The notes beneath the pieces are model-generated. The model was not told the origin of the DNA and made no database searches. It saw nothing but the letters and a program-made list of their open reading frames with translations. Positions 14,163-25,691 of a DNA stretch of 64,000 bases are shown here, in pieces. Origin of the DNA: Desulfovibrio mangrovi (GTDB lineage Bacteria; Desulfobacterota; Desulfovibrionia; Desulfovibrionales; Desulfovibrionaceae); NCBI RefSeq assembly GCF_026230175.1, contig NZ_CP104208.1, forward strand, positions 1,550,001-1,614,000, read 5' to 3'. Position numbers and translations under genes: made by a program. Numbering within the stretch: the stretch's first letter is position 1; every line of letters begins with the position of its first letter.

Positions 14163-16697
14163 TCATGCCTTGATGGGTAGGCGGAAAATGAAGGTTGTTC
14201 CCTCTCCAACCTTGGACTCGACGGAAAAAGCACCACCATGGTTCTGAGTGATGATGAAGTATGAAACAGACAAACCCAACCCGGTTCCGATCCCTTTCGG
14301 CTTGGTGGTGAAGAACGGTTCAAATACCCTCTTACGAACGTCCTCAGGCATGCCCGGCCCATTGTCTGCGACTTCCGTGACCACAAATCCGCCCTCCTGC
14401 CTGAGCCTGATCGTGATGCGCGAAGGCTCTTCCCTTTCTCCCATGGCACTCATGGCTTGCGCGGCATTGCCGAAAAGGTTGAGCAGTACCTGCTCAATTT
14501 CGGTCGGTGCACAAACGACATAGGGAAGATTGTCTTCATAATCCCTGACGAGTTCAATCTGACGAAAATCGTATTTCTTCTTCAGATCATAGTCCTGCGA
14601 GGCCAGATCGACCGCCTTGTCGACAAGCTCGTTCAACAGGGACGAGGTTTGGTGAGCTTCGCTCTTGCGGCTGAAGTCAAGCATATTGGCGATGATTTGG
14701 GCGGCACGCTCCGCTGATTCCCGAATGCCGCTCACCATCTTGAGTATCTTGCGGTCTTCCATGTAGCGGCGCATGGCGTCGAAGGGCAGGCCGCATTCTT
14801 CAGCGGCTGTGATGTTGCCCGGCAAATCTGGCGAAAGCCGGCGCTCAATGTTCTGTGCCCCCTGCAGGATACCGCCGAGAGGATTGTTGATTTCGTGCGC
14901 CATGCCAGCAGCCAGTCCGCCTACTGACATCATTTTTTCAGTCTGGATCATCATTTCTTCGATGCGCACCCGCGTCGTCACATCGTCCAAACGGATGACC
15001 GCCCCTTCCAGTCCGTTTTCCATAAGCGGATAAACCGTGATGTTCTCGTAGCGTGTTTCGCCCTCTACAACACGGGGAACGCGGGCCCGTTCGTCGGTTT
15101 GTCCGTTTTGTATGACAGTACGAGCGCGATCCATTTCACGTGCCAGTACAGGAAAAACATCGGCTAGAGGGCGCCCCTGAACCTCTTCAAAGGTAAATCC
15201 GATGGCGTGTTGGGCTCCCGCATTCCACTGCGTTACCAAGCCTTCCTTGTCGACCCCGACGAGAATTGAGGGCATGGAGTCGATAATGTTTTTGAGATGA
15301 TTGCGCAGCCTAGTGAGTTCTTCCTTGGCCAGCCTGTGCTCCGCGATTTCCGTCTCAAGTCGTTCGTTTGAGGCAACCAACTCCCTGTTACCTTCTGCCA
15401 GTTCGCTGACGAGTTGCTCCTTCTCCTTCATGCTCCGGGTGATGGATTCCAGCATTTGATTGATGACTATGCCTAGTTCCCTTGTTTCAGAAGGACCGCT
15501 TACGGGAATGTCTACGGCATAGACCCCGCGCTCCCGAATGGCTTTCGCGGCAGCGGTAAGCCGTAGCAGGGGAGACACTATCCGACCGGAACATGCGGCT
15601 GCAGTCAAAAGAGCGAATACGAGAATAGTGCCGGAAAGCAATATAATCTTGTTACGCAACTCCAGTCCCGGCTTTTCCAATTCATCTGTATACACAGCCG
15701 CGCATATGTACCAATCCAGCGGCGTGAAGTACTTTACATACCCGCGTTTCCGAAATCGAAATTCACCCACATGATCTGGGGGTTTATCCCAAAGATATTC
15801 ATATGTTCCGTCGCCTTGACTGGCCTCAACCAGTTCCTCCAGCAACGGACGACCTGTAAGATGGTTTAAGAGCTGTCTTCCTTCGACGTTCGTATAGAGC
15901 GGATGGATGATAAAATTCCGTTCGCCTGTGAAAATATACATATACCCGCTTTCTGCAATTGTGATCTTTGAGAATGTGTCTTGAAGTTCTTGCAGAATGG
16001 CATTGCGCCGTTTCGTTACATCTGTCTCGATGTCATCGATATATACACCTGTTCCGATGATCCATTCCCACTCTTTGAATATTCTGACGTATGAAAGTTT
16101 GGGTTGATCAGATGAAAGGCCTCCAGGAGTCGGTTTAGGCCACAAATAATTTACGTAACCGCTTCCGCCATTTTCCACGGTTTTACGAAAAGCAACAAAC
16201 AGATTTTTATCCGGCCCCATGGCAACGTTGAATTTTGGATCATCATTTGGTTTGCCCACAAGTTCAGGGAGCGTTGGGTGCATAATAAGTTTTGGGATTG
16301 GGCTTTCAGTATTGTTAAGCCATATATATCCAACCCCTTCGTCATATCGAAATGAACGTAACGCCTCCCTTGCTTCTTCTTTTGCTGCACTTTCAGATAC
16401 AATTCCGGATTTGTATTTAGCATAGCATCTCTGGACAACTGCATATGCAATGTCCATCACGGCCCTTAACTCCTGCTTTCTACGTTCAAGAGCTGTCTGT
16501 TCATAGAATATAAGACTTTGATATTCATTCACCACATTCAGATAGACTGCCTCGACAAGACCTTGGGCATGCTTGAACTCGGTTTGCGAAGCACTACGGG
16601 TGATTTCTCTTTGGGCAAAGAAAGTAACCCCGGTAGCCGTCGTCACAACCAGAACGGCAACAAAGAGAAGTATGATCACTTTCATGGAGTTGAACAT
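14163..16697 (-). CDS. Membrane sensor histidine kinase (dCache-HAMP-PAS-HisKA-HATPase)
   Basis: 844 residues from the ATG at 16697, which has GGAG eight bases upstream. Order: membrane segment ([17 protein letters not shown]), a long periplasmic double cache domain with two related halves (GYIWLNN...[17 protein letters not shown] and [11 protein letters not shown]...[15 protein letters not shown]), a second membrane segment near 345-370, HAMP, PAS ([17 protein letters not shown]), HisKA with [12 protein letters not shown], and HATPase ([25 protein letters not shown]). It should sense an extracellular small molecule and phosphorylate a regulator not found next to it. Orphan kinase; last unit of the repeat-separated region. 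Confidence 0.9.
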
Positions 16698-17144
16698 GTC
16701 GGCACTCTCCATCAAACTTGTCCGCGCAGAATGGTCGAACCGCAATCAATTCATGGCTATTGTGACAAAGGACTCCTTTCAATCATACCCTGCAAGGCAC
16801 AGATGGGTAAAGGCGCTTGGTAAATTAATAACGTAAGCGCAAAGGAATTACCCTACTCCAGTTGGAATACCTGTACGCCAAATAGCTTTCGATCACTGCA
16901 TGGCTTGGGGATCCATCCCGGTTGTTACTGGAACCATACCTGCACAAGACATCCCATTTGCCAGGCTTACCACCTCGAAATTGAGAATATCCGATACCGA
17001 ACTCCCCCCGGAAAGTTGCTCCGGGACACCTCATTCGAGAGCAACGCTCTCAAGATCACCATTTTTTCCGCTCACGAATATTTTGAATATCCGCAGGTTA
17101 TCTTTTCAAACGCACAGCGCCTTGTGAAATAACGTACAATTCTG
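16698..17144. other. Intergenic region without recognisable gene
   Basis: Separates the divergent kinase gene from the ridA operon. Short frames occur on both strands (e.g. minus 16825-17034, plus 16905-17132) but lack a ribosome binding site or recognisable motif. It must hold the kinase promoter; I could not place it. Confidence 0.5.
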
Positions 17145-17173
17145 TTGACACGGAGTTTTATCGCGGATAGGAG
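17145..17173 (+). promoter_or_regulatory. Candidate sigma-70 promoter of the ridA operon
   Basis: TTGACA at 17145-17150 is a perfect -35; the -10 at about 17-bp spacing (taggag, 17168-17173) is poor. The palindromic operator begins 9 bp downstream, consistent with a repressed or activator-helped promoter. Confidence 0.45.
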
Positions 17174-17181
17174 GGAATCAC

Positions 17182-17225
17182 AATGTCCAAATGTCGACAT
17201 TTGGACATTCAACATTTGGACATTG
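17182..17225. promoter_or_regulatory. Operator: 28-bp perfect palindrome plus a third half-site
   Basis: aatgtccaaatgtc / gacatttggacatt forms a perfect 28-bp palindrome centred at 17195/17196. A further copy of acatttggacatt starts at 17212, 15 bp after the previous one at 17197. Located between the promoter and ridA, it is the natural target for the GntR/FCD regulator encoded at 23911 in the same direction. Confidence 0.75.
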
Positions 17226-17257
17226 TGACAAAACACACCAACTGGAGAAAACGCAAG

Positions 17258-17641
17258 ATGACCAAGCAAATCATCGACACTCCCGGCGCTCCGGCAGCCA
17301 TCGGCCCTTACTCGCAGGCCGTTGTTGCCGGCGACTTTCTGTTCACTTCCGGGGCGCTGCCCATTGATCCTGCCACCGGCAAGATGGTGGAGGGCAGCAT
17401 CGAAGATCGCGCGCATCAGGTCTTCAAGAACCTGAGCGCCATTGCCAAAGAAGCGGGCACTTCGCTCGACAATGCCGTCAAGACGACTGTTTACCTTGCC
17501 AACATTGCCGACTTTCAGGCCGTAAACGGCGTTTACGCACAATATTTCAACAAGCCCTTCCCTGCCCGCAGCGCTTTTCAGGTGGCAGCCCTGCCTCTGG
17601 GTGCGGACGTTGAAGTGGAATGCATCATCAACCTTAAGTAA
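17258..17641 (+). CDS. ridA: RidA-family 2-iminoacid/enamine deaminase
   Basis: 127 residues, the usual family length, starting at the ATG at 17258 (MTKQIIDTPGAPAAIGPYSQ) behind ggagaaaacgcaag; a longer frame from 17183 would translate the operator and is rejected. Signature segments: GPYSQAV, FTSGALPIDPATG, VKTTVYLANIADF and the C-terminal PARSAFQVAALPLGADVEVE with the substrate-binding Arg and Glu. RidA hydrolyses 2-aminoacrylate and related enamines to ketoacids plus ammonia. It stands 20 bp before a PLP lyase that should make just such an enamine, which fits a shared pathway. Confidence 0.93.
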   Translation: MTKQIIDTPGAPAAIGPYSQAVVAGDFLFTSGALPIDPATGKMVEGSIEDRAHQVFKNLSAIAKEAGTSLDNAVKTTVYLANIADFQAVNGVYAQYFNKPFPARSAFQVAALPLGADVEVECIINLK

Positions 17642-17661
17642 TCGAGATTAAGGAACTTCCT

Positions 17662-18663
17662 ATGAACCTCGCAAAGTTTCCCCGCCGCGGCTATGTGAAG
17701 ACCCCCACCCCCATCGAGGCTGTTCCGGCTTTCTCCAAGGCCCTGGGCGGCAAGGTGAACCTGTTCATCAAGCGCGACGATCTGCTGCCCGGTTGTGCCG
17801 GCGGTAACAAGACCCGCAAGCTCGACTTCTGCATTGCCGACGCACTGGAAAAAGGCGCCGACACCATCATCACCTGCGGTGCCGTGCAGTCCAACCACTG
17901 CCGCCTGACCCTTTCCTGGGCCGTCAAGGAAGGCATGGACTGCCATCTGGTTCTGGAAGAGCGCGTGAAGGGCAGCTACAAGCCCGAAGCATCCGGCAAC
18001 AACTTCCTGTTTCAGCTCATGGGCGTGAAGTCCGTCACCGTGGTTCCCGGCGGTTCCAACATGATGGGCGAAATGGAAAAGCTGGCCGCAACGCTGGCAG
18101 CTGAAGGCAAGAAGCCCTACATCATCCCCGGCGGCGCTTCCAACACCATCGGCGCCACCGGTTACGTTTCCTGTGCTGAAGAAGTGCTGCAGCAGCTCTT
18201 CGAGATGGGCCTGAAGATCGACCACATGGTTGTTCCCAGCGGTTCCGCCGGCACCCACGCCGGTATCGTGGTCGGCATGGTTGGCTGCAATGCCAACATT
18301 CCGGTCAGCGGCGTCAACGTCAGCCGCCCCAAGGACGTTCAGGAAGGCATCGTCCACAAGCTGGCTCAGAAAACCGCAGAACTCGTAGGCGTCAAGGGCA
18401 GCATCCCCGCTGAAGCTGTGGAATGCTTTGATTCCTACGTCGGCCCCGGCTACTCCCTGCCCACCGAAGGTATGGTTGAAGCCGTCAAGCTGCTGGCCTC
18501 CACCGAAGGCATCCTGCTCGACCCTGTGTACTCCGGAAAAGCCATGGCAGGGCTGATCGATCTGGTACGCAAGGGCCACTTCCCCGAAGGCTCCAATGTG
18601 CTCTTCCTGCACACCGGCGGCTCTCCGGCCCTGTACGCATATCTGGATACCTTCCGCGACTAA
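17662..18663 (+). CDS. dcyD: D-cysteine desulfhydrase family PLP lyase
   Basis: 333 residues. PLP lysine in GGNKTRKLDF (Lys50), substrate/PLP region GAVQSNHCR, phosphate-binding SGSAGTHAG and the family C terminus GILLDPVYSGKAMAGLIDL...FLHTGG. This family includes D-cysteine desulfhydrase (to pyruvate, sulfide and ammonia), ACC deaminase and L-cysteate sulfo-lyase CuyA. The E. coli DcyD-like end favours D-cysteine, but cysteate cannot be excluded by eye. The first product would be 2-aminoacrylate, matching the upstream ridA. A hairpin and a TRAP transporter follow. Confidence 0.82.
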   Translation: MNLAKFPRRGYVKTPTPIEAVPAFSKALGGKVNLFIKRDDLLPGCAGGNKTRKLDFCIADALEKGADTIITCGAVQSNHCRLTLSWAVKEGMDCHLVLEERVKGSYKPEASGNNFLFQLMGVKSVTVVPGGSNMMGEMEKLAATLAAEGKKPYIIPGGASNTIGATGYVSCAEEVLQQLFEMGLKIDHMVVPSGSAGTHAGIVVGMVGCNANIPVSGVNVSRPKDVQEGIVHKLAQKTAELVGVKGSIPAEAVECFDSYVGPGYSLPTEGMVEAVKLLASTEGILLDPVYSGKAMAGLIDLVRKGHFPEGSNVLFLHTGGSPALYAYLDTFRD

Positions 18664-18673
18664 TTGTAGAATG

Positions 18674-18700
18674 GGCCTGTGTTTATTGCGAACGCAGGCC
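18674..18700 (+). terminator. Hairpin between dcyD and dctP (partial terminator?)
   Basis: ggcctgtgtt pairs with aacgcaggcc (one G-U) around a 7-base loop; then tattaataat. A weak terminator or attenuator that could set a different level for the transporter genes. Confidence 0.5.
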
Positions 18701-18787
18701 TATTAATAATGGGTTAAGGCACCAAGGTATTGTTTTGTAATGTGAAGCAGCGATTCAGGAAGACTGCTTCGGAAAAGGAGAAAGAAG

Positions 18788-19780
18788 ATGTCTCGCATTT
18801 ACACCCTGCTGATCGCATTTGTGGCCGTCATAGTCATGACCACCGCCGCAGTCGCCGGTACCACCGTCATCAAGCTGGCCCACCCTAACGTTCCCCAGCA
18901 CCCCATGGGGCAGGCTTTTGAAAAATTCAAGGAACTGGTTGAAACCCGTACCAACGGCAAGTTCCGCGTTGATATTTACGACAGCTCCAAGTTCGGTAAC
19001 TTCGACGCCGTTGTGCAGGGCCTGCAGTACAACATGCTGCAGATGGGCTCCGCCTCCACCCCCAACCTGGCCCCCTTCTCTGATGACTTCCTGCTCTTCG
19101 ATCTGCCCTTCCTCTTCCCCGACTACGAGTCCACCGACAAGATCACCGACGGCCCCATCGGCATGAACGCCGCCAAGGCTCTGGAAAAGACCGGCATCAT
19201 CGGCCTTGGCTACATTGAAATCGGCTTCCGCAACCTGTGGAACAACCAGCGCACCGTAAAGACGCTGGAAGATGCCAAGGGCCTCAAGATCCGCTCCACT
19301 CCTTCCAAGGCACACATCGCCACCCTGAAGGCTCTGGGCATGAACTCCACCCCCATTTCCTGGGGTGAAGTTTACACCGCTCTGCAGCAGAAGACCGTAG
19401 ACGGCATCGACATTGACCTGAACCTCGCATGGTACAACAACTTCCCTGAAGTAAACAACAACCTGACCATGGTGAACAGCCTTTACAGCCCCCACCTGGT
19501 CATGATTTCCAAGCGCTTCCTCGACTCCCTGTCTGCTGAAGACAAGAAGATCATCCTCGACTCCTTCGAAGAGAGCAAACTCTACGAGCGCAAGCTTATC
19601 CGCGAAGGTGAAAAGGAAATCATGGCCAAGCTCGCGGACAAGGGCGTCACCGTTTACACCCTCACCCCCGAAGAGCGTGCCCGCTGGGCTGAAGCAACTG
19701 CTGGTGTCTACCAGGAGTTCGAACAGCGCATCGGCAAAGATCTGATTGAACGCGCCAAGGCGACTATCGCCGGCGAATAG
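18788..19780 (+). CDS. TRAP transporter periplasmic solute-binding protein (DctP family)
   Basis: 330 residues with an N-terminal signal peptide (cleavage near AAVAG). DctP-family features: VIKLAHPNVPQHPMGQAFEKFKE at the start of the mature chain, FRNLWNNQRTVKTLEDAKGLKIR with the conserved Arg that binds a substrate carboxylate, and WGEVYTALQQKTVDGID. It captures an organic acid or amino acid in the periplasm for the DctQM permease encoded next. Substrate unknown; the neighbouring lyase suggests an amino acid such as cysteine or cysteate (inference). Good aaaggagaaagaag before the ATG. Confidence 0.92.
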   Translation: MSRIYTLLIAFVAVIVMTTAAVAGTTVIKLAHPNVPQHPMGQAFEKFKELVETRTNGKFRVDIYDSSKFGNFDAVVQGLQYNMLQMGSASTPNLAPFSDDFLLFDLPFLFPDYESTDKITDGPIGMNAAKALEKTGIIGLGYIEIGFRNLWNNQRTVKTLEDAKGLKIRSTPSKAHIATLKALGMNSTPISWGEVYTALQQKTVDGIDIDLNLAWYNNFPEVNNNLTMVNSLYSPHLVMISKRFLDSLSAEDKKIILDSFEESKLYERKLIREGEKEIMAKLADKGVTVYTLTPEERARWAEATAGVYQEFEQRIGKDLIERAKATIAGE

Positions 19781-19853
19781 CAAGCCTGCTTTGGCCGCCG
19801 GGCATCCTCTCAATCCCGGCGGCCAATATCAAAGAAGCAACTACGAGAGTGCC

Positions 19854-20345
19854 ATGAGTAAAAACTTGTTAGATAAAGTCGAAGGGATTGTCTCCTCTGC
19901 CTGTCTGGGCGGAATGGCGTTGATTATCGCTGTTCAGGTTTTTCAGCGATATGTTCTGCAAAGCTCGCTGGACTGGTCCGAAGAGTTGGCCCGTTATCTC
20001 TTCATATGGTCGGTCTATGTGGGCTGCAGCTACGCCACGCAGAAGGACAGACATCTTGAAGTGACCATCCTCCGCACTCTGTTTGGTCCGACATTCGCCA
20101 AGTACGTAACCTTGGCCGCTTATGTCTGCACCATCGGATTCTGCGTCTGTACAGCCGTGTGGGGCTTTCAGATGGTCGACTTCCTCGCTGGTACCGGGCA
20201 GAAAACCCCTGCCCTTGAAGTTCAAATGTACTGGGTATTCCTCAGTGTTCCTGTCGGCATGGGCCTCATGGCTCTCAGAACCGCACAGCGTGTTCTTTCC
20301 ATCCTCCGGGGCGAAATCACCTTTGATTCCCCGTCCGGCAATTAA
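19854..20345 (+). CDS. TRAP transporter small membrane subunit (DctQ family)
   Basis: 163 residues from the ATG at 19854 (MSKNLLDKVEG); a longer frame from 19746 overlaps the dctP 3' end and is not preferred. Four hydrophobic segments and the family motif SLDWSEELARYLFIWSVYVG with SYATQKDRHLEV. It pairs with the large subunit encoded 13 bp downstream. Confidence 0.92.
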   Translation: MSKNLLDKVEGIVSSACLGGMALIIAVQVFQRYVLQSSLDWSEELARYLFIWSVYVGCSYATQKDRHLEVTILRTLFGPTFAKYVTLAAYVCTIGFCVCTAVWGFQMVDFLAGTGQKTPALEVQMYWVFLSVPVGMGLMALRTAQRVLSILRGEITFDSPSGN

Positions 20346-20358
20346 AAGGTCTTAACAT

Positions 20359-21639
20359 ATGGATACTGCTATCCTCCTTACATTTCTGGCACTCGCCGCG
20401 TTTCTGTTCCTGAGCGTGCCCATCGGCGTTGCCATCGGTTTGAGCGTTATCGTAGGCGTCTGGGCCGGCGATATGCTCCCCTTTGAGTTCCTGATTCAGA
20501 AAATGGTCAACTCTCTGGACGTTTTCCCGCTCATGGCCGTCCCGTTCTTCATCATGGCGGGCGAGATCATGCAGAAGGGAAGTATGGCCCAGCGCCTGCT
20601 GACCGTTTCCAAGGGCCTTGTGGGCCACATCACCGGCGGCATGGCTCATATCTCGGTCCTGACCAGCATGTTCTACGGCGCCCTGTCCGGCTCTGCTCCG
20701 GCTACGGTTGCCGCAGTGGGCGGCATCATGATCCCGTCCATGAAGAAGGAAGGCTACAGCACCTCCTTCTCCACCGCTGTCAACACTGCTGCGGGCTGTC
20801 TGGGCGTTATGATTCCGCCCAGCGTTCCGCTGATCATCTACGGCACCACCGCAGGTGTTTCCGTGGGTGACCTGTTCATTGCGGGCGTTGTTCCCGGCAT
20901 CTTCGTCGGTCTCTGCCTCATGGCATGCAGCTATGTTCTGTCCAAGAAGTACGGTTACAGAGGCACCGGAGACCGCGCGTCCTTCAAGGAGATCATGATC
21001 GCCTTCAAGGATTCCATTGTCGCCCTCATGGTTCCGCTCATCGTTCTCGGCGGCATCTATGGCGGCCTGACCACCCCCACGGAAGCAGGCGTTATCGCTG
21101 TTCTGTACGCCTTTGTGGCCGAAGGGCTGATTCTGCGTACGCTGAGCTGGAACAAGGTCACCGAGATATTCAAGGGCACCGCCCTGACCACGGCCTCCAT
21201 CTTCCTCGTGGTTGCCACGGCTACCGCACTCGGCCAGATTCTGCTCTTCTACAACGTGCCGGACATGCTGGTGAACTTCCTCGTAAGCATCTCCGACAAC
21301 AAGTATATCCTGATCCCGATTATTCTGGCCTTCCTGCTGATCATGGGTACCTTCATGGACGCACTGGCCAACATTCTGATCCTGACCCCTCTCCTGCTGC
21401 CTGTAGTCAAGGTGCTGGGTATGGACCCGATTCACTTCGGCATCGTCATGATCGTCTGTGCTTCCATGGGCTTCTTGACACCGCCCGTAGGGGTGAACCT
21501 CTTCGTGGGGTGCAGCATAGGTAACATCAGCATCGAAAAGCTGAGCGTGGCCGTGCTTCCCTTCCTGTTCACCATGATTCTGGCGTTGCTTGTCATCGTC
21601 TTCTTCCCGCCTCTGACACTTTGGTTGCCGGGCCTCTAA
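20359..21639 (+). CDS. TRAP transporter large permease (DctM family)
   Basis: 426 residues, about 12 membrane segments. Typical DctM elements: VPFFIMAGEIMQKGSMAQRL, GALSGSAPATVAAVGGIMIPSM, TAAGCLGVMIPPSVPLIIYG, TPTEAGVIAVLYA and MGFLTPPVGVNLFVG. It forms the Na+-driven substrate channel with DctQ. Followed by a strong 13-bp stem hairpin before the next gene. Confidence 0.94.
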   Translation: MDTAILLTFLALAAFLFLSVPIGVAIGLSVIVGVWAGDMLPFEFLIQKMVNSLDVFPLMAVPFFIMAGEIMQKGSMAQRLLTVSKGLVGHITGGMAHISVLTSMFYGALSGSAPATVAAVGGIMIPSMKKEGYSTSFSTAVNTAAGCLGVMIPPSVPLIIYGTTAGVSVGDLFIAGVVPGIFVGLCLMACSYVLSKKYGYRGTGDRASFKEIMIAFKDSIVALMVPLIVLGGIYGGLTTPTEAGVIAVLYAFVAEGLILRTLSWNKVTEIFKGTALTTASIFLVVATATALGQILLFYNVPDMLVNFLVSISDNKYILIPIILAFLLIMGTFMDALANILILTPLLLPVVKVLGMDPIHFGIVMIVCASMGFLTPPVGVNLFVGCSIGNISIEKLSVAVLPFLFTMILALLVIVFFPPLTLWLPGL

Positions 21640-21647
21640 CCGGTAAA

Positions 21648-21685
21648 GGGTCCGTCCGCCGGCACCTCCAGCGGCGGACGGACCC
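21648..21685 (+). terminator. 13-bp stem hairpin between dctM and the unknown gene
   Basis: gggtccgtccgcc pairs perfectly with ggcggacggaccc around a 12-base loop, then ggagattttt. The GGAG directly after the stem is also the ribosome binding site of the next gene, so this may be an attenuator or an RNA stability element rather than a full stop. Confidence 0.55.
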
Positions 21686-21696
21686 GGAGATTTTTC

Positions 21697-22926
21697 ATGC
21701 AGATATACCCCAATCCCAACGGAAACAGCATAATCGGCATCTCCGGCCATGCCGGAGTTGGCCATATTCATAGCCACAACGGATTTGTGCAGGATGATTC
21801 CGCCGGATTCGCCGTGGCCATCGGGATTATCAGGCAGGCATACCCTGCCGACACCACCATTACTGCCGCCTCTGTAGATGCGCGCACCGGCACGGTAACC
21901 GTTACCACCAGAGACGGTGGCACGGGATGCGCAACAGCCCGACGGGGATTCACCCCGCACGAGGCGGCCCGCATGCTCTCGGCCATCGGCCTTGATGCCG
22001 CCTACAGCCAGTCCACCGCCTTCCGCGTGTTCGGACGCATCTACGGTCAGGGCGTGCTTGAAGCACCCGTTGCCCTGCAAGCTGCATGCTGTCTGGCCGT
22101 CATGAACACCTTCGCCGTCAAGTATCCTGATGCCGTCGTTCAAGGCCACGAAGACATGCCTGGTAAAATCGGTGGCTGCATCGGCGCACGGGTACTCATG
22201 AACGACACCCCTGTCTCAGTTTTGGCCATGACCAATGCCAACGAAGGCGGACTCGGTCCGGATGAAGATCTGGAAGGCAACATCGCCCTTGGCGACAAGG
22301 GGCGCGTCATGCGCGAACTCGGACTGGACCGCCTGCCGACCGTCATTCTGGAGAGCAAGGCCTTCGTTCCTTCCCTGTGTCAGGGAGTGGACCATAGCCG
22401 CATGTGGGTCCGCATGAATGCCGAGGCGGACAACCGCTACGTATACGAAGCCCTGCTTGCCGGAGTGAAGACGGCAGACCTGCCTTTTCTCTGCTCGGAC
22501 TCGGCCTATCCTCGCCACAAGGGAGAACTCAGAGTTGCTGAACTGGAGCTCGGCAGACGCATTGTCGAGATAGGCACGGCGTTTTCAAGCGCGAAGACAT
22601 CCGCAGAGAAAGTACAGCTCATGGGTGAACTGGCGATTATCGTCAGTCAGGATGCAGGCGGTGTAACCTTCATGAGTGCCCATATGCACGATCAGGTGGG
22701 GGGAGGCGGCATCATGCCCGGCACCAGCGCGGTGCTGTCCATGCTTGTTGCCGAAGACTACATCCGTGAATGGATCATTCCGGCCTTCACTGCGGACGAC
22801 GCTTCCAGATACATGGCTGTTCTCGGCCATGCCATCCCCTTGCTCGCGGCGGATGCCGCCAAGGCAAAAGCCCAGCTGGAAGAACGCTTCGCCTTTGATG
22901 AAGCCGAACACGCATTCCTCTATTAA
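21697..22926 (+). CDS. Conserved-looking protein of unknown function in the RidA/lyase operon
   Basis: 409 residues; I do not recognise the family. Striking features: a His/Gly-rich N-terminal block (ISGHAGVGHIHSHNGFVQDD, residues ~15-34), a second His/Gly block late (MSAHMHDQVGGGGIMPG), GGCIGARVLM, ANEGGLGPDEDLEGN and several cysteines. No signal peptide or membrane segment, so cytoplasmic. The two histidine-rich glycine loops suggest a metal- or phosphate-binding enzyme active site (inference). It sits 57 bp after dctM and 8 bp before the racemase gene, so is almost certainly in the same operon and may act on the imported substrate. Confidence 0.75.
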   Translation: MQIYPNPNGNSIIGISGHAGVGHIHSHNGFVQDDSAGFAVAIGIIRQAYPADTTITAASVDARTGTVTVTTRDGGTGCATARRGFTPHEAARMLSAIGLDAAYSQSTAFRVFGRIYGQGVLEAPVALQAACCLAVMNTFAVKYPDAVVQGHEDMPGKIGGCIGARVLMNDTPVSVLAMTNANEGGLGPDEDLEGNIALGDKGRVMRELGLDRLPTVILESKAFVPSLCQGVDHSRMWVRMNAEADNRYVYEALLAGVKTADLPFLCSDSAYPRHKGELRVAELELGRRIVEIGTAFSSAKTSAEKVQLMGELAIIVSQDAGGVTFMSAHMHDQVGGGGIMPGTSAVLSMLVAEDYIREWIIPAFTADDASRYMAVLGHAIPLLAADAAKAKAQLEERFAFDEAEHAFLY

Positions 22927-22934
22927 CCAGCCCC

Positions 22935-23834
22935 ATGATGCTTGACGGTTCCATTACCCCGCAGGTTTCCCCGCAGGGAATTCTCTGTGAAATGCTGCCG
23001 GTGCAGCAAGTACGGCTCCCCCGCATCGGCCTGTTCGATTCCGGCGTGGGCGGTCTTTCTGTGCTGAGCCGCCTGCAGGCGGCCATGCCCTGGCTCGACT
23101 ATATTTACTGCGGGGATACAGCCCGCCTGCCCTATGGGAAGCGGAGTCCGGCAACCATCATCGAGTACTCGTTGCAGGCCTCCAGATTCCTGGTCCAATC
23201 CGGTGCGGACTGCATAGTCATCGCCTGCAACACGGCTTCCTCCGTGGCCCTGGGGGCCGTTCAGCAGGCCTTTCCCGACATTGTGGTGCGCGGCGTGGTG
23301 GACGCCGGAGCACGGGCTGCCGCCCAAGCATCCCGCTCCGGCAGAGTTGGTCTGATAGGCACGGAATGCACGGTGGCATCGCGCGCCTATGAAAAGGCCA
23401 TAGCACAGATACTGCCCGCTGCCGAGGTCCGCTCCCGTGCATGCCCTTTTCTGGTTTCGCTGGCCGAAGAGGGGTGGACTCAGGATCACATCGCCGCTAT
23501 GGCAGTTCGCAAGTATATTGAGCCACTTCTGGCCGATTTTGCACCGTACAATCCGGACTGCATCATCTGCGGGTGTACACATTTTTCCCGTTTCAGCACG
23601 GTAATACGCGACATCGTCAGTCCGGATGTGGTTCTTGTGGACCCCGCCGACAGTCTCGCCGAAGAACTGGCTGCCAATTTCTCATTGCAATTCGGCGAAG
23701 AGGAGCACAATAACGGCTCCACAACATTTTACGTTACGGATGCCCTGCAGCGATTTGCCCGTGTAGGTGAGCAATTTCTGGGCGCAAGCATTCCCTTCAA
23801 CTCGGTTCAGCAGATCGAACTCGACAACCAGTAA
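22935..23834 (+). CDS. murI: Glutamate racemase-like amino acid racemase
   Basis: 299 residues from 22935; an in-frame ATG at 22989 after caggga gives 281 residues, closer to the usual length. Both catalytic cysteine motifs are present (IACNTASS and CGCTHF), with FDSGVGGLSVL at the start and YCGDTARLPYGKRS. MurI makes D-glutamate for peptidoglycan by cofactor-free two-base racemisation. Its place in a catabolic operon instead of with cell-wall genes raises the possibility of a different amino-acid substrate or a role feeding the lyase; this is inference. Confidence 0.83.
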   Translation: MMLDGSITPQVSPQGILCEMLPVQQVRLPRIGLFDSGVGGLSVLSRLQAAMPWLDYIYCGDTARLPYGKRSPATIIEYSLQASRFLVQSGADCIVIACNTASSVALGAVQQAFPDIVVRGVVDAGARAAAQASRSGRVGLIGTECTVASRAYEKAIAQILPAAEVRSRACPFLVSLAEEGWTQDHIAAMAVRKYIEPLLADFAPYNPDCIICGCTHFSRFSTVIRDIVSPDVVLVDPADSLAEELAANFSLQFGEEEHNNGSTTFYVTDALQRFARVGEQFLGASIPFNSVQQIELDNQ

Positions 23835-23910
23835 CTTAACAGTATATATGGCACTATTAACCGGCACAATCCTCGCACACATAGAAGGTCCGTTCAGCAC
23901 GGGAGATTCC

Positions 23911-24582
23911 ATGAGTGGCATCAAGAAGCTCACTTATAGCGAACAAGTCGCTGAATACGTCAAGCAGTCCATTCTGAAGGGAGAGCTCTCTCCCGGCGAT
24001 CAGATCAAGGAAGTACTGCTTACGGAACAGCTCGGCATCAGCCGTGCGCCCATCCGGGAAGCCCTGCAGCTTCTGATGCGGGAAGGACTCATTCAGTCTG
24101 AGCCGCAAAAGGCCAAGTATGTGACGGCGCTGACGGCAAAACAGATCGAGGACAGCTACTTCACCGGTGGCGTGCTTGAAGCGGCAGCGGTAACGCAGGC
24201 ACTGCCGCTCTATACGGAAGAAGACATCACCCATCTGGAACAGGTTGTTGAGGGCATGCGCAAGGTCGCCGAATCCGGAGAAAGCCCGGACTCCCTGACC
24301 CAGCTTGACAACACCTTTCACAACATTCTGTTTTCCCGCGTAGACAACGAACTGCTCATTGATCTGTGCCGCCGCTCCTGTCAGGGGATCTCCAAATTCC
24401 TGCTCTACAAGTACTGGATAACCCTGTACACGCCGCAGCAGGTATACGAGCGCCATCTCGAAATCCTGGAAGCGCTGAAGTCCGGCAAGCCTGCCACTCT
24501 GGAAAAAACCATCCGCAAGCACTATACGGATTCCGGCAAACGCATGTCCCAATACGGCGTTGATGTGTACAAGAAAGAATAG
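23911..24582 (+). CDS. GntR-family regulator with FCD domain
   Basis: 223 residues from the ATG at 23911, which has gggag five bases upstream. N-terminal winged helix (SILKGELSPGDQIKEVLLTEQLGISR, then APIREALQLLMREGLIQ), C-terminal all-helical FCD ligand domain (DNTFHNILF, ERHLEILEALKSG). FCD regulators sense carboxylic or amino acids. Last gene of the ridA operon direction; probable ligand: the operon substrate; probable site: the palindrome at 17182-17225. Both are inferred from context. Confidence 0.88.
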   Translation: MSGIKKLTYSEQVAEYVKQSILKGELSPGDQIKEVLLTEQLGISRAPIREALQLLMREGLIQSEPQKAKYVTALTAKQIEDSYFTGGVLEAAAVTQALPLYTEEDITHLEQVVEGMRKVAESGESPDSLTQLDNTFHNILFSRVDNELLIDLCRRSCQGISKFLLYKYWITLYTPQQVYERHLEILEALKSGKPATLEKTIRKHYTDSGKRMSQYGVDVYKKE

Positions 24583-24704: not shown

Positions 24705-25691
24705 ATGACCACACGCATAGCAATTAATGGATTTGGAAGAATCGGTCGCTATCTTACCCGACTTCTCGCTCAAACCCCCTCCCTTGAGCTAGTGACCGTC
24801 AACGATATCATGCCCCTCGGCGAAGCCGTTCATCTTCTGCAATACGACTCTGTCCACGGCCGTTTTCCGGATGTTGAACAGCAAGGGGATGAGCGTTTTC
24901 TCGTAAACGGCTCACCCGTCCGCTACTCGCAGCTATCCCCCGACAACTGGAATTGGGGAGAGCTTGGCGTTGATATCGTGGTCGAAGCAACCGGCGTCTT
25001 CACGGATAGGCGCCATGCCGAGCGCCATCTACTGTGCGGTGCCAAACGCGTTGTTATTGCAGCCCCTGCCGACGACGCAGATATTACCGTGGTCATGGGG
25101 GTCAATGACGGCAACCTCACGAAAGACCATACCATCATATCCAACGCCTCCTGCACCACCAACTGCCTCGCCCTGCCCATCCAGCATATCGAAAAGCGGT
25201 TCGGCATTGTGCACGGCAACATGACTACGGTGCATCCCTACACCATGCGCCAGCGCATTCTCGACGGCAGCCACCCTGATCAGCGCCGAGCCCGCGCGTG
25301 TGCGATCAACATTGTTCCCACGCCTGTCAGAACACACAAAACCGTGGAAAAAGTCATACCGGAACTACAGGGCAAACTTTCCGGATCGGCCCTCCGCGTT
25401 CCTGTGGCAAACGTGGCACTTATCGATCTCGTATGCGAGTTGGCAACACCGACAACCACAAATGAAGTCCGCACGGTTCTACGCGATGCCGCAGACGACC
25501 ACATGGCCTACAGCACGGCACCTCTCGTCTCATCAGACTTTACCGGGAGCACCTACGGCTCGGTTGTTGACGAAGAAATGACCTATGTAACCGACGGCAC
25601 AATGGTCCGCCTGCTGGCGTGGTACGACAATGAGGCAGGTTTTACCAACCAACTGCTCCGCCTGTTGCTCAAGCTGCACAACGAGTTCTAA
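24705..25691 (+). CDS. gap: Glyceraldehyde-3-phosphate dehydrogenase, atypical
   Basis: 328 residues. NAD-binding INGFGRIGR, the catalytic SNASCTTNCLAL (Cys within SCTTN), HPYTMRQRILDG carrying the catalytic-His region, and NEAGFTNQLLRLL. It oxidises glyceraldehyde-3-phosphate to 1,3-bisphosphoglycerate. The usual phosphate-site segment STGAAKAV is replaced by PVRTHKTV (near 25325-25345), and HAYTxDQ reads HPYTMRQ. This suggests altered phosphate or substrate handling, perhaps a second GAPDH or a related sugar-phosphate enzyme. Single gene, not obviously part of an operon. Confidence 0.87.
   Translation: MTTRIAINGFGRIGRYLTRLLAQTPSLELVTVNDIMPLGEAVHLLQYDSVHGRFPDVEQQGDERFLVNGSPVRYSQLSPDNWNWGELGVDIVVEATGVFTDRRHAERHLLCGAKRVVIAAPADDADITVVMGVNDGNLTKDHTIISNASCTTNCLALPIQHIEKRFGIVHGNMTTVHPYTMRQRILDGSHPDQRRARACAINIVPTPVRTHKTVEKVIPELQGKLSGSALRVPVANVALIDLVCELATPTTTNEVRTVLRDAADDHMAYSTAPLVSSDFTGSTYGSVVDEEMTYVTDGTMVRLLAWYDNEAGFTNQLLRLLLKLHNEF

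What the first reader, a model, noticed from the sequence alone, without database searches (positions are those of the whole stretch)
17145..24582. Operon coupling a PLP lyase, RidA, a TRAP importer, an unknown enzyme-like protein, a racemase and a regulator
Seen: seven same-strand genes from a palindrome-bearing promoter through gntR: ridA, D-cysteine desulfhydrase family lyase, dctP, dctQ, dctM, the 409-residue unknown, MurI-like racemase, gntR-FCD. Known: such lyases release 2-aminoacrylate, which RidA hydrolyses; FCD regulators sense acids. Inference: a self-contained import and catabolism system for D-cysteine, cysteate or a related amino acid, giving pyruvate, ammonia and sulfide or sulfite, the last being usable by a sulfate reducer. 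The combination with a racemase is one I do not recognise.
Basis: partly seen in the sequence, partly recalled or inferred. Interest (0 to 1): 0.72.

Follow-up and report, generated by a model that had tools for sequence, protein, structure and literature searches.

The report
Cysteate-eating operon with unknown enzyme
This is a gene set with which a sulfite-respiring bacterium probably imports the sulfur-containing amino acid cysteate and splits it into pyruvate, ammonia and sulfite, and it carries an enzyme-like protein, found in several bacterial phyla, that matches no described family and whose job is unknown.

Summary
Eight same-strand genes (17258-24582) follow a real palindrome: ridA, PLP lyase, dctP, dctQ, dctM, a 409-residue protein (here X409), a MurI-like racemase and gntR-FCD. 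The lyase passes NCBI's model for D-cysteate sulfo-lyase CuyA (534 bits, cut-off 450) and fails the D-cysteine desulfhydrase models; the genome has dsrA. Cysteate to pyruvate, ammonia and sulfite is therefore likelier than D-cysteine to sulfide. CuyA plus a cysteate racemase is already described, but this racemase is MurI-like, not CuyB. The core TGTCGACA lies before 16 of 18 cuyA operons carrying this GntR and 0 of 11 without it (two more have the site but no such GntR in the stretch fetched). X409 is the real unknown: 40 aligned members match no Pfam, NCBIfam or PDB sequence family, and two confident AlphaFold models have no close PDB fold. It sits beside importers in 36 of 42 loci, often with asparaginase; of 24 X409-bearing Desulfobacterota genomes 22 have CuyA over cut-off and 2 in fragments. 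One relative has X409 and a CuyB-like racemase in one run, so X409 is probably a separate step. Its reaction is not established. Strong stem-loops in three gaps leave a single transcript unproven.

The parts
17145..17173 (+). possible promoter: TTGACA, 17 bases, TAGGAG (weak second hexamer)
   Evidence: read; not reported by the consensus scan; TTGACA also stands before the operator in several relatives
17182..17228 (.). operator: palindrome with two 14-base arms (core AATGTCGACATT at 17190-17201) plus an extra half-site
   Evidence: inverted repeats I1, I3; only exact core in the genome; footprint in relatives
17258..17641 (+). ridA, enamine/imine deaminase
   Evidence: PF01042 132 bits; TIGR00004 170 bits, cut-off 106
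17662..18663 (+). cuyA, PLP-dependent D-cysteate sulfo-lyase
   Evidence: NF052482 534 bits, cut-off 450; only gene over the cut-off in the genome
18670..18704 (+). stem-loop in the cuyA-dctP gap
   Evidence: -24.8 kcal/mol, z -5.7; no T-run after it
18788..19780 (+). dctP, TRAP solute-binding protein
   Evidence: PF03480 268 bits; TIGR00787 over cut-off; second-best PDB sequence match is the isethionate-binding protein 8t9t, E 2e-58
19854..20345 (+). dctQ, TRAP small permease
   Evidence: PF04290 124 bits
20359..21639 (+). dctM, TRAP large permease
   Evidence: PF06808 378 bits; TIGR00786 421 bits, cut-off 268
21648..21685 (+). 14-pair stem-loop in the dctM-X409 gap, with five T shortly after it
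   Evidence: -33.4 kcal/mol, z -4.9; stems also predicted in this gap in L017, L026, L027 and L055
21697..22926 (+). X409, enzyme-like protein of an undescribed family
   Evidence: no Pfam/NCBIfam/PDB sequence match; 42 related loci; AlphaFold pLDDT 95.4, pTM 0.94
22935..23834 (+). MurI-like amino-acid racemase, probably recruited as cysteate racemase
   Evidence: TIGR00067 197 bits, cut-off 147; CuyB model 54 bits, cut-off 190; motifs ACNTA and CGCTH present
23911..24582 (+). gntR, GntR-FCD regulator of the operon
   Evidence: PF00392 and PF07729 over cut-off; presence tracks the operator across operons

Best explanation
A self-regulated gene set for cysteate dissimilation in a sulfite-respiring Desulfobacterota bacterium. 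Steps: (1) the TRAP system dctPQM imports cysteate or a close relative (inferred); (2) the MurI-like racemase turns L- into D-cysteate, doing the job that CuyB does elsewhere (inferred); (3) CuyA eliminates sulfite from D-cysteate, giving 2-aminoacrylate, which RidA helps hydrolyse to pyruvate and ammonia (family assignment shown; reaction from the literature and recalled RidA chemistry); (4) sulfite is reduced by DsrAB (dsrA shown); (5) the GntR-FCD protein binds the AATGTCGACATT palindrome and responds to the substrate or a product (binding inferred from footprinting, effector unknown). X409 is an enzyme that works on the imported acidic amino acid or a derivative of it, most likely in a step other than racemisation. 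My single best guess, weakly held (about 0.35), is a hydrolase that frees the acidic amino acid from an amide or N-acyl form; racemase/epimerase about 0.2; anything else about 0.45.
For: CuyA over its curated cut-off. Same gene order ridA-cuyA-dctPQM-X409-gntR in L017, L019, L022, L025, L026, L027, L029, L055, L058 (four families by the labels) and L168, L169. Operator core near the first gene in 16 of 18 cuyA operons with this GntR and 0 of 11 without (two further operons, L142 and L167, have the core but no such GntR in the fetched stretch). CuyB stands beside cuyA in 7 of 12 X409-less loci of the phylum sample, and a CuyB-like gene stands with X409 and cuyA in L172, so a racemase is a recurring partner of CuyA. 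Of 24 X409-bearing Desulfobacterota genomes 22 have CuyA over cut-off and 2 have it in pieces, against 11 of 295 sampled genomes of the phylum without X409. dsrA 644 bits. DctP keeps R156, R177, S95, N98, W200 and H244 of the isethionate-binding protein. For X409: an importer gene beside it in 36 of 42 loci, asparaginase in 10, Amidohydro_3 in 6.
Against: No expression or biochemical data. [quoted passage not shown] so CuyA alone does not prove cysteate respiration. The same passages, and the title of the 2006 paper they cite, call CuyA an L-cysteate lyase, so its stereopreference rests on PMC11382572 and the NCBIfam name. DctP differs from the isethionate-binding protein at D77, Y153 and N217. 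Of the nine named X409-cuyA-gntR operons none has CuyB or an intact MurI-like gene nearby, and only L017 shows a remnant (L029 not), so either D-cysteate is imported, a distant racemase serves, or X409 is the racemase. Outside Desulfobacterota only 3 of 25 X409 genomes have CuyA over cut-off, so X409 is not a dedicated cysteate enzyme. The MurI-like protein could be a second glutamate racemase. Foldseek TM-scores for X409 are 0.2-0.4, too low to name a fold.
Confidence: 0.72

Rival explanations
1. D-cysteine (or L-cysteine after racemisation) degradation: the lyase is a D-cysteine desulfhydrase and the operon yields sulfide.
For: The broad subfamily model TIGR01275 'D-cysteine desulfhydrase family' is over cut-off (307 vs 289); the closest PDB sequence is called D-cysteine desulfhydrase (7ysk); [quoted passage not shown]
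Against: Three D-cysteine desulfhydrase equivalog models are missed (308 vs 429, 283 vs 469, 283 vs 610) while the CuyA equivalog is passed by 84 bits. DctP is close to a sulfonate-binding protein. CuyA genes of the same family stand beside CuyB in other genomes.
Confidence: 0.12
2. X409 is itself the cysteate (acidic amino acid) racemase of operons that lack CuyB, and the MurI-like gene of the window is a redundant or different racemase.
For: When first counted, 0 of 10 X409-cuyA operons against 7 of 12 others had CuyB beside cuyA (Fisher 0.005; related genomes, so not independent). In L017 only a 3' remnant of the MurI-like gene is left between X409 and gntR (alignment score 86, best of 500 shuffles 46), so the operon tolerates its loss. 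Three of 40 members touch the DapF epimerase model, best E 0.008.
Against: L172 has X409 and a CuyB-like gene (252 bits by phmmer to a CuyB over cut-off; the NCBIfam model itself was not run on it) in one run, making it 1 of 14 with L167, L168 and L169; the p-value was not recomputed. CuyB over cut-off lies near X409 in L032 and L045, and a similar gene by phmmer in L047 and L051. No invariant or nearly invariant cysteine in 40 sequences, so the usual two-thiol mechanism is unlikely.
Confidence: 0.2
3. The MurI-like gene is a spare glutamate racemase for cell-wall synthesis that was caught in the operon by chance.
For: It passes TIGR00067 and fails CuyB. No match above 51% identity in the 78 other genomes.
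Against: The genome has a better-scoring murI elsewhere (216 bits), 44% identical to this one. The remnant in L017 shows that the gene was in the operon of a related lineage too. A racemase recurs beside CuyA.
Confidence: 0.2
4. The genes are not one transcript: internal termination or processing splits the set, for example after cuyA, dctP or dctM.
For: Strong stem-loops in the gaps after cuyA (z -5.7), after dctP and after dctM (z -4.9, five T soon after); the dctM-X409 gap also folds strongly in L017, L026, L027 and L055. Two Desulfoluna genomes keep ridA-cuyA-gntR and dctPQM-X409 at separate places. These folds were found on rechecking and raised this rival from 0.15 to 0.25.
Against: The scan found no + strand terminator-like site inside a gap, though its rule (loop of 3-8, T-run within two bases) would miss these stems. 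Such stems can also just protect or attenuate parts of one message (recalled). Gene order is kept in 11 relatives.
Confidence: 0.25

Closest known systems
CuyA/CuyB cysteate degradation (NCBIfam NF052482, NF052483; described in passages of PMC11382572, which cites Liu et al. 2024, J. Biol. Chem. 300:107371, not held here)
   Same: CuyA over cut-off; a racemase in the same gene set; importer and regulator alongside
   Different: racemase is MurI-like and fails the CuyB model; X409 has no counterpart in the passages read; own TRAP importer
Isethionate TRAP binding protein IseP of Oleidesulfovibrio alaskensis (PMC11668362, passages read)
   Same: TRAP importer of a sulfonate in a sulfate reducer; both anion-binding arginines and several sulfonate contacts kept
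   Different: positions D77, Y153 and N217 are changed; partner enzymes differ
Glutamate racemase MurI
   Same: family model over cut-off; DSGVGG, ACNTA and CGCTH motifs
   Different: second copy, 44% identical to the genome's own murI, sits in a catabolic gene set
SDF symporter - X409 - type I asparaginase clusters of other phyla (found here)
   Same: an importer of the dicarboxylate/acidic amino acid class next to X409
   Different: asparaginase instead of CuyA; no operator core in the two such loci scanned, L032 and L035

Membership tests
CuyA, D-cysteate sulfo-lyase (NF052482) | score over the curated equivalog cut-off (450 bits) | tested here: met
   534 bits
CuyA, D-cysteate sulfo-lyase (NF052482) | sulfite release from D-cysteate | not testable with these tools
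   needs the purified enzyme
D-cysteine desulfhydrase (NF003030, NF003032, NF003029) | score over an equivalog cut-off | tested here: not met
   308/429, 283/469, 283/610 bits
ACC deaminase (TIGR01274, NF010646) | score over an equivalog cut-off | tested here: not met
   263/392 and 241/550 bits
CuyB, cysteate racemase (NF052483) | score over the curated cut-off (190 bits) | tested here: not met
   54 bits for the window racemase; no gene of the genome over cut-off, best 118 bits
MurI, glutamate racemase (TIGR00067) | score over cut-off and the two cysteine motifs | tested here: met
   197/147 bits; ACNTA and CGCTH found (that these hold the catalytic cysteines is recalled)
RidA (TIGR00004) | score over cut-off | tested here: met
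   170/106 bits
TRAP transporter (DctP, DctQ, DctM) | all three subunits over Pfam cut-offs | tested here: met
Isethionate-binding protein IseP | ligand-contacting residues | tested here: inconclusive
   R156, R177, S95, N98, W200, H244 kept; D77, Y153, N217 changed
GntR-FCD regulator | GntR DNA-binding domain and FCD domain | tested here: met
   61/27 and 63/24 bits
any described family, for X409 | Pfam, NCBIfam or PDB sequence match | tested here: not met
   stray hits only, best E 0.008, over 40 members
nucleoside phosphorylase or Zn-aminopeptidase fold, for X409 | TM-score above 0.5 to a solved structure | tested here: not met
   window model: uridine phosphorylases, best E 8e-6, probability 1.00, but TM 0.21-0.38 and rmsd 10-12; second member: best E 0.0033, TM 0.24-0.37 in the first five

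The most novel reading that the evidence does not exclude
X409 founds a new enzyme family, with its own or a far-diverged fold, that performs an undescribed step in the use of aspartate-like amino acids (aspartate, asparagine, cysteate and derivatives) in Bacillota, Synergistota, Sutterellaceae and Desulfobacterota; in sulfite respirers it feeds CuyA from a sulfonate that the known CuyB route does not cover.
Probability: 0.45. Interest if true: 0.65.

Novelty: new variant of a known kind. Interest (0 to 1): 0.48.

Why it matters
Cysteate is one of the organic sulfonates that can feed sulfite respiration and so hydrogen sulfide formation (PMC6278857, passages). The gene set links its lyase to an importer, regulator and operator that can be recognised in other genomes, and it points at a protein family without annotation that travels with acidic amino acid importers in several phyla. 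Naming its reaction would annotate dozens of genomes at once and could reveal a substrate that is now overlooked.

Tried and rejected
X409 as simple replacement of CuyB: looked good at first (0 of 10 against 7 of 12) but lost weight when L172 turned up with both. A horizontal-transfer story from base composition: operon GC 0.572 against 0.563 outside, so composition shows nothing. Fold naming of X409: Foldseek against PDB with two models and against viral models with one gave no usable match. The single-sequence scan of genome contigs found no relative of X409; the two-sequence alignment found 42 loci. One plasmid of 72,556 records holds a relative. The longer ridA ORF from 17183 was rejected because it spans the operator. 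The CuyB paper (Liu et al. 2024) and Denger et al. 2006 are not held, so CuyA and CuyB biochemistry rests on passages of PMC11382572, PMC10507020 and PMC6278857.

Rows left out: L049 (masked run of N), L050 and L056 (fragments) are not in alignment A2, so 39 of 42 loci plus the window. One search counts 29 cuyA operons; left out of it are L142 and L167 (core present, no such GntR in the stretch), the first cuyA copies of L026, L168 and L169 (a core lies before each), the copies L170 and L171, the cut locus L037, and L051 and L053. The first-gene starts of L025, L027, L029, L055 and L108 were rounded by eye; the search took 400 bases upstream and 60 downstream. The Fisher value was not recomputed.
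Full report
WHAT IS THERE. The window lies at 1550001-1614000 of a single-contig 3.95 Mb genome. Eight + strand genes run from 17258 to 24582: ridA, a PLP lyase, dctP, dctQ, dctM, a 409-residue protein called X409 here, a MurI-like racemase and a GntR-FCD regulator. Every one except X409 passes a curated Pfam or NCBIfam cut-off of its family.

THE LYASE. NCBIfam places it as CuyA, D-cysteate sulfo-lyase (534 bits, cut-off 450); it misses the cut-offs of three D-cysteine desulfhydrase models and two ACC deaminase models. It is the only gene of the genome over the CuyA cut-off. CuyA over cut-off is uncommon in the phylum: 13 of 297 sampled genomes, two of them with X409. PMC11382572 (passages) says that D-cysteate is CuyA's preferred substrate, that CuyB is the racemase, and that the products are pyruvate, ammonia and sulfite. 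PMC6278857 (passages) lists cysteate among organic sulfite donors of anaerobic respiration. The genome has dsrA (644 bits). [quoted passage not shown]

THE IMPORTER. The second-best PDB sequence for DctP is the isethionate-binding TRAP protein of a sulfate reducer (8t9t, E 2e-58). Of the contacts given in PMC11668362 (passages), R156, R177, S95, N98, W200 and H244 are kept, while D77, Y153 and N217 are changed to F, I and I, with acidic residues on both sides of the last. A small anionic amino acid would fit; this is inference.

THE REGULATOR AND ITS SITE. The palindrome is exact over two 14-base arms and its core AATGTCGACATT occurs once in the genome, with 8 further places at one mismatch, against 4 places for the pattern read backwards. 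In 29 cuyA operons the core TGTCGACA stands before 16 of 18 that carry a GntR of this kind and before 0 of 11 that do not; the two exceptions with the GntR, L104 and L106, have the variants AATGTCAACATT and AATGTTAACATT. Two operons left out of that count, L142 and L167, have the core without such a GntR in the fetched stretch; the genome of L142 has the GntR elsewhere (L143), that of L167 was not checked. Operons with GntR and site but no X409 exist (L108, L139, L141, L143), so the site belongs to the regulator and not to X409. No paper of the library holds the words cysteate, GntR and operator together.

TRANSCRIPTION. Strong stem-loops lie after cuyA (18670-18704, z -5.7), after dctP (about 19791-19827) and after dctM (21648-21685, z -4.9); the scan would not list them by its rule. 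Stems are also predicted in the dctM-X409 gap of L017, L026, L027 and L055, less so in L019, L022 and L058. They may set levels within one message or split it.

X409. Alone it matched nothing over a cut-off in Pfam and nothing in NCBIfam or PDB sequences, and 40 aligned members gave only stray hits. An alignment with one relative led to 42 loci in named genomes. In 15 of the 42 the TRAP permease dctM stands directly upstream; 14 loci fall in a cluster of Na+:dicarboxylate symporters and L035 has a symporter piece; 6 have an Amidohydro_3 protein, 5 of these with an amino acid permease; L043 has M20, AbgT and an unknown protein; so 36 of 42 have an importer gene. Ten have a type I asparaginase cluster member. 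Clusters were made by BLAST; Pfam or NCBIfam was run on two symporters, two asparaginases, one amidohydrolase and one permease of them. Two further asparaginases, in L173 and L175 from relatives of the window, were confirmed. Invariant residues are mostly glycines and polar or charged residues (H18, H23, Q32, D34, N180, E190, D191, E193, N195, K201, E219, K221, R239, D245), and no cysteine. Models of the window protein and of a distant member are confident (pLDDT 95.4 and 94.9). Best solved folds are nucleoside phosphorylases (window model E 8e-6, probability 1.00; second member none at E 0.001 or better) and, weaker, aminopeptidases, at TM-scores of 0.2 to 0.4, too weak to name the fold.

X409 AND CUYA. 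Of 24 Desulfobacterota genomes with X409, 22 have CuyA over cut-off and two (G311, G312) have pieces (17 genomes, 7). Among sampled genomes of the phylum without X409 it is 11 of 295. Many of the 24 are close kin, so they are not independent. Two Desulfoluna genomes hold dctPQM-X409 (L018, L021) and, elsewhere, site-ridA-cuyA-gntR (L139, L141); one also holds a second TRAP-ridA-cuyA-CuyB set (L140). Outside the phylum only 3 of 25 X409 genomes have CuyA over cut-off. X409 thus goes with importers of acidic amino acids in general, and in sulfite respirers with cysteate.

RACEMASES. In 12 X409-less cuyA loci of the phylum, 7 have CuyB beside cuyA, one of them cut by a contig end. X409-cuyA operons lacked it in 10 of 10 at first count (Fisher 0.005), which suggested that X409 replaces CuyB. 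L172 then showed dctPQM-X409-ridA-cuyA and a CuyB-like gene (phmmer 252 bits) in one run, while L167, L168 and L169 showed none, so the count is 1 of 14. CuyB over cut-off also lies near X409 in L032 and L045, similar genes in L047 and L051. X409 and a racemase are therefore more likely two separate functions. The window's racemase is MurI-like, 44% identical to the genome's own murI, and has no match above 51% in the 78 other genomes. In L017, the nearest operon, a 3' remnant of this gene lies between X409 and gntR (score 86, best shuffle 46; seven other operons 25 to 39). In the CuyA tree the X409 operons are clustered but not one clade (5 changes, shuffled mean 9.7).

VERDICT. A new variant of a known kind: CuyA-based cysteate use, with a MurI-like racemase probably in CuyB's place, its own TRAP importer and a recognisable GntR site. 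The interesting residue is X409, a family without a name. Its reaction is unknown; an amide or N-acyl hydrolase is my weakly held guess because other amidohydrolases keep it company (asparaginase, Amidohydro_3, M20). On rechecking I lowered the main confidence from 0.75 to 0.72 and raised the D-cysteine rival from 0.10 to 0.12 for the growth failure of T. muris and the conflicting stereochemistry, and raised the several-transcripts rival from 0.15 to 0.25 for the stem-loops.

Noticed in passing
L017:11226-11520: A 3' remnant of the MurI-like racemase gene lies between X409 and gntR in the nearest related operon; the rest of the gene is gone.
   Followed up: yes
The window has GC 0.56, the loci L026, L027, L168 and L169 about 0.45.
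   Followed up: partly
L168:691-4507, L169:448-4236, L026:3627-5985: Two close cuyA copies in a row, each with its own operator site; in L168 and L169 the first is followed by an NhaC-like transporter gene.
   Followed up: partly
L176:2072-9152 (plasmid CP102408.1, Fusobacteria bacterium ZRK30): An X409 relative annotated 'hypothetical protein' lies near a glycyl radical enzyme, its activase and a TauE-type sulfite exporter, which looks like sulfonate degradation; those are on the other strand, so the link may be chance.
   Followed up: no
L145:8811-12549: A dctPQM-CuyB unit without cuyA in the fetched stretch, a parallel to the dctPQM-X409 units of Desulfoluna.
   Followed up: no
window 14163-16745, - strand: A divergent 860-residue ORF that reads like a membrane-bound sensor histidine kinase (judged by eye; no family search run).
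   Followed up: no
L054:5342-7254 (Mailhella MAG): dctPQM-X409 is followed by a pyrroline-5-carboxylate-reductase-like gene and a 364-residue protein without any family hit; a site AAATGTCGACAA lies before dctP.
   Followed up: partly
window 24705-25691: A glyceraldehyde-3-phosphate dehydrogenase-like gene (named by reading) follows gntR here; a 76% identical one follows gntR in L017.
   Followed up: partly
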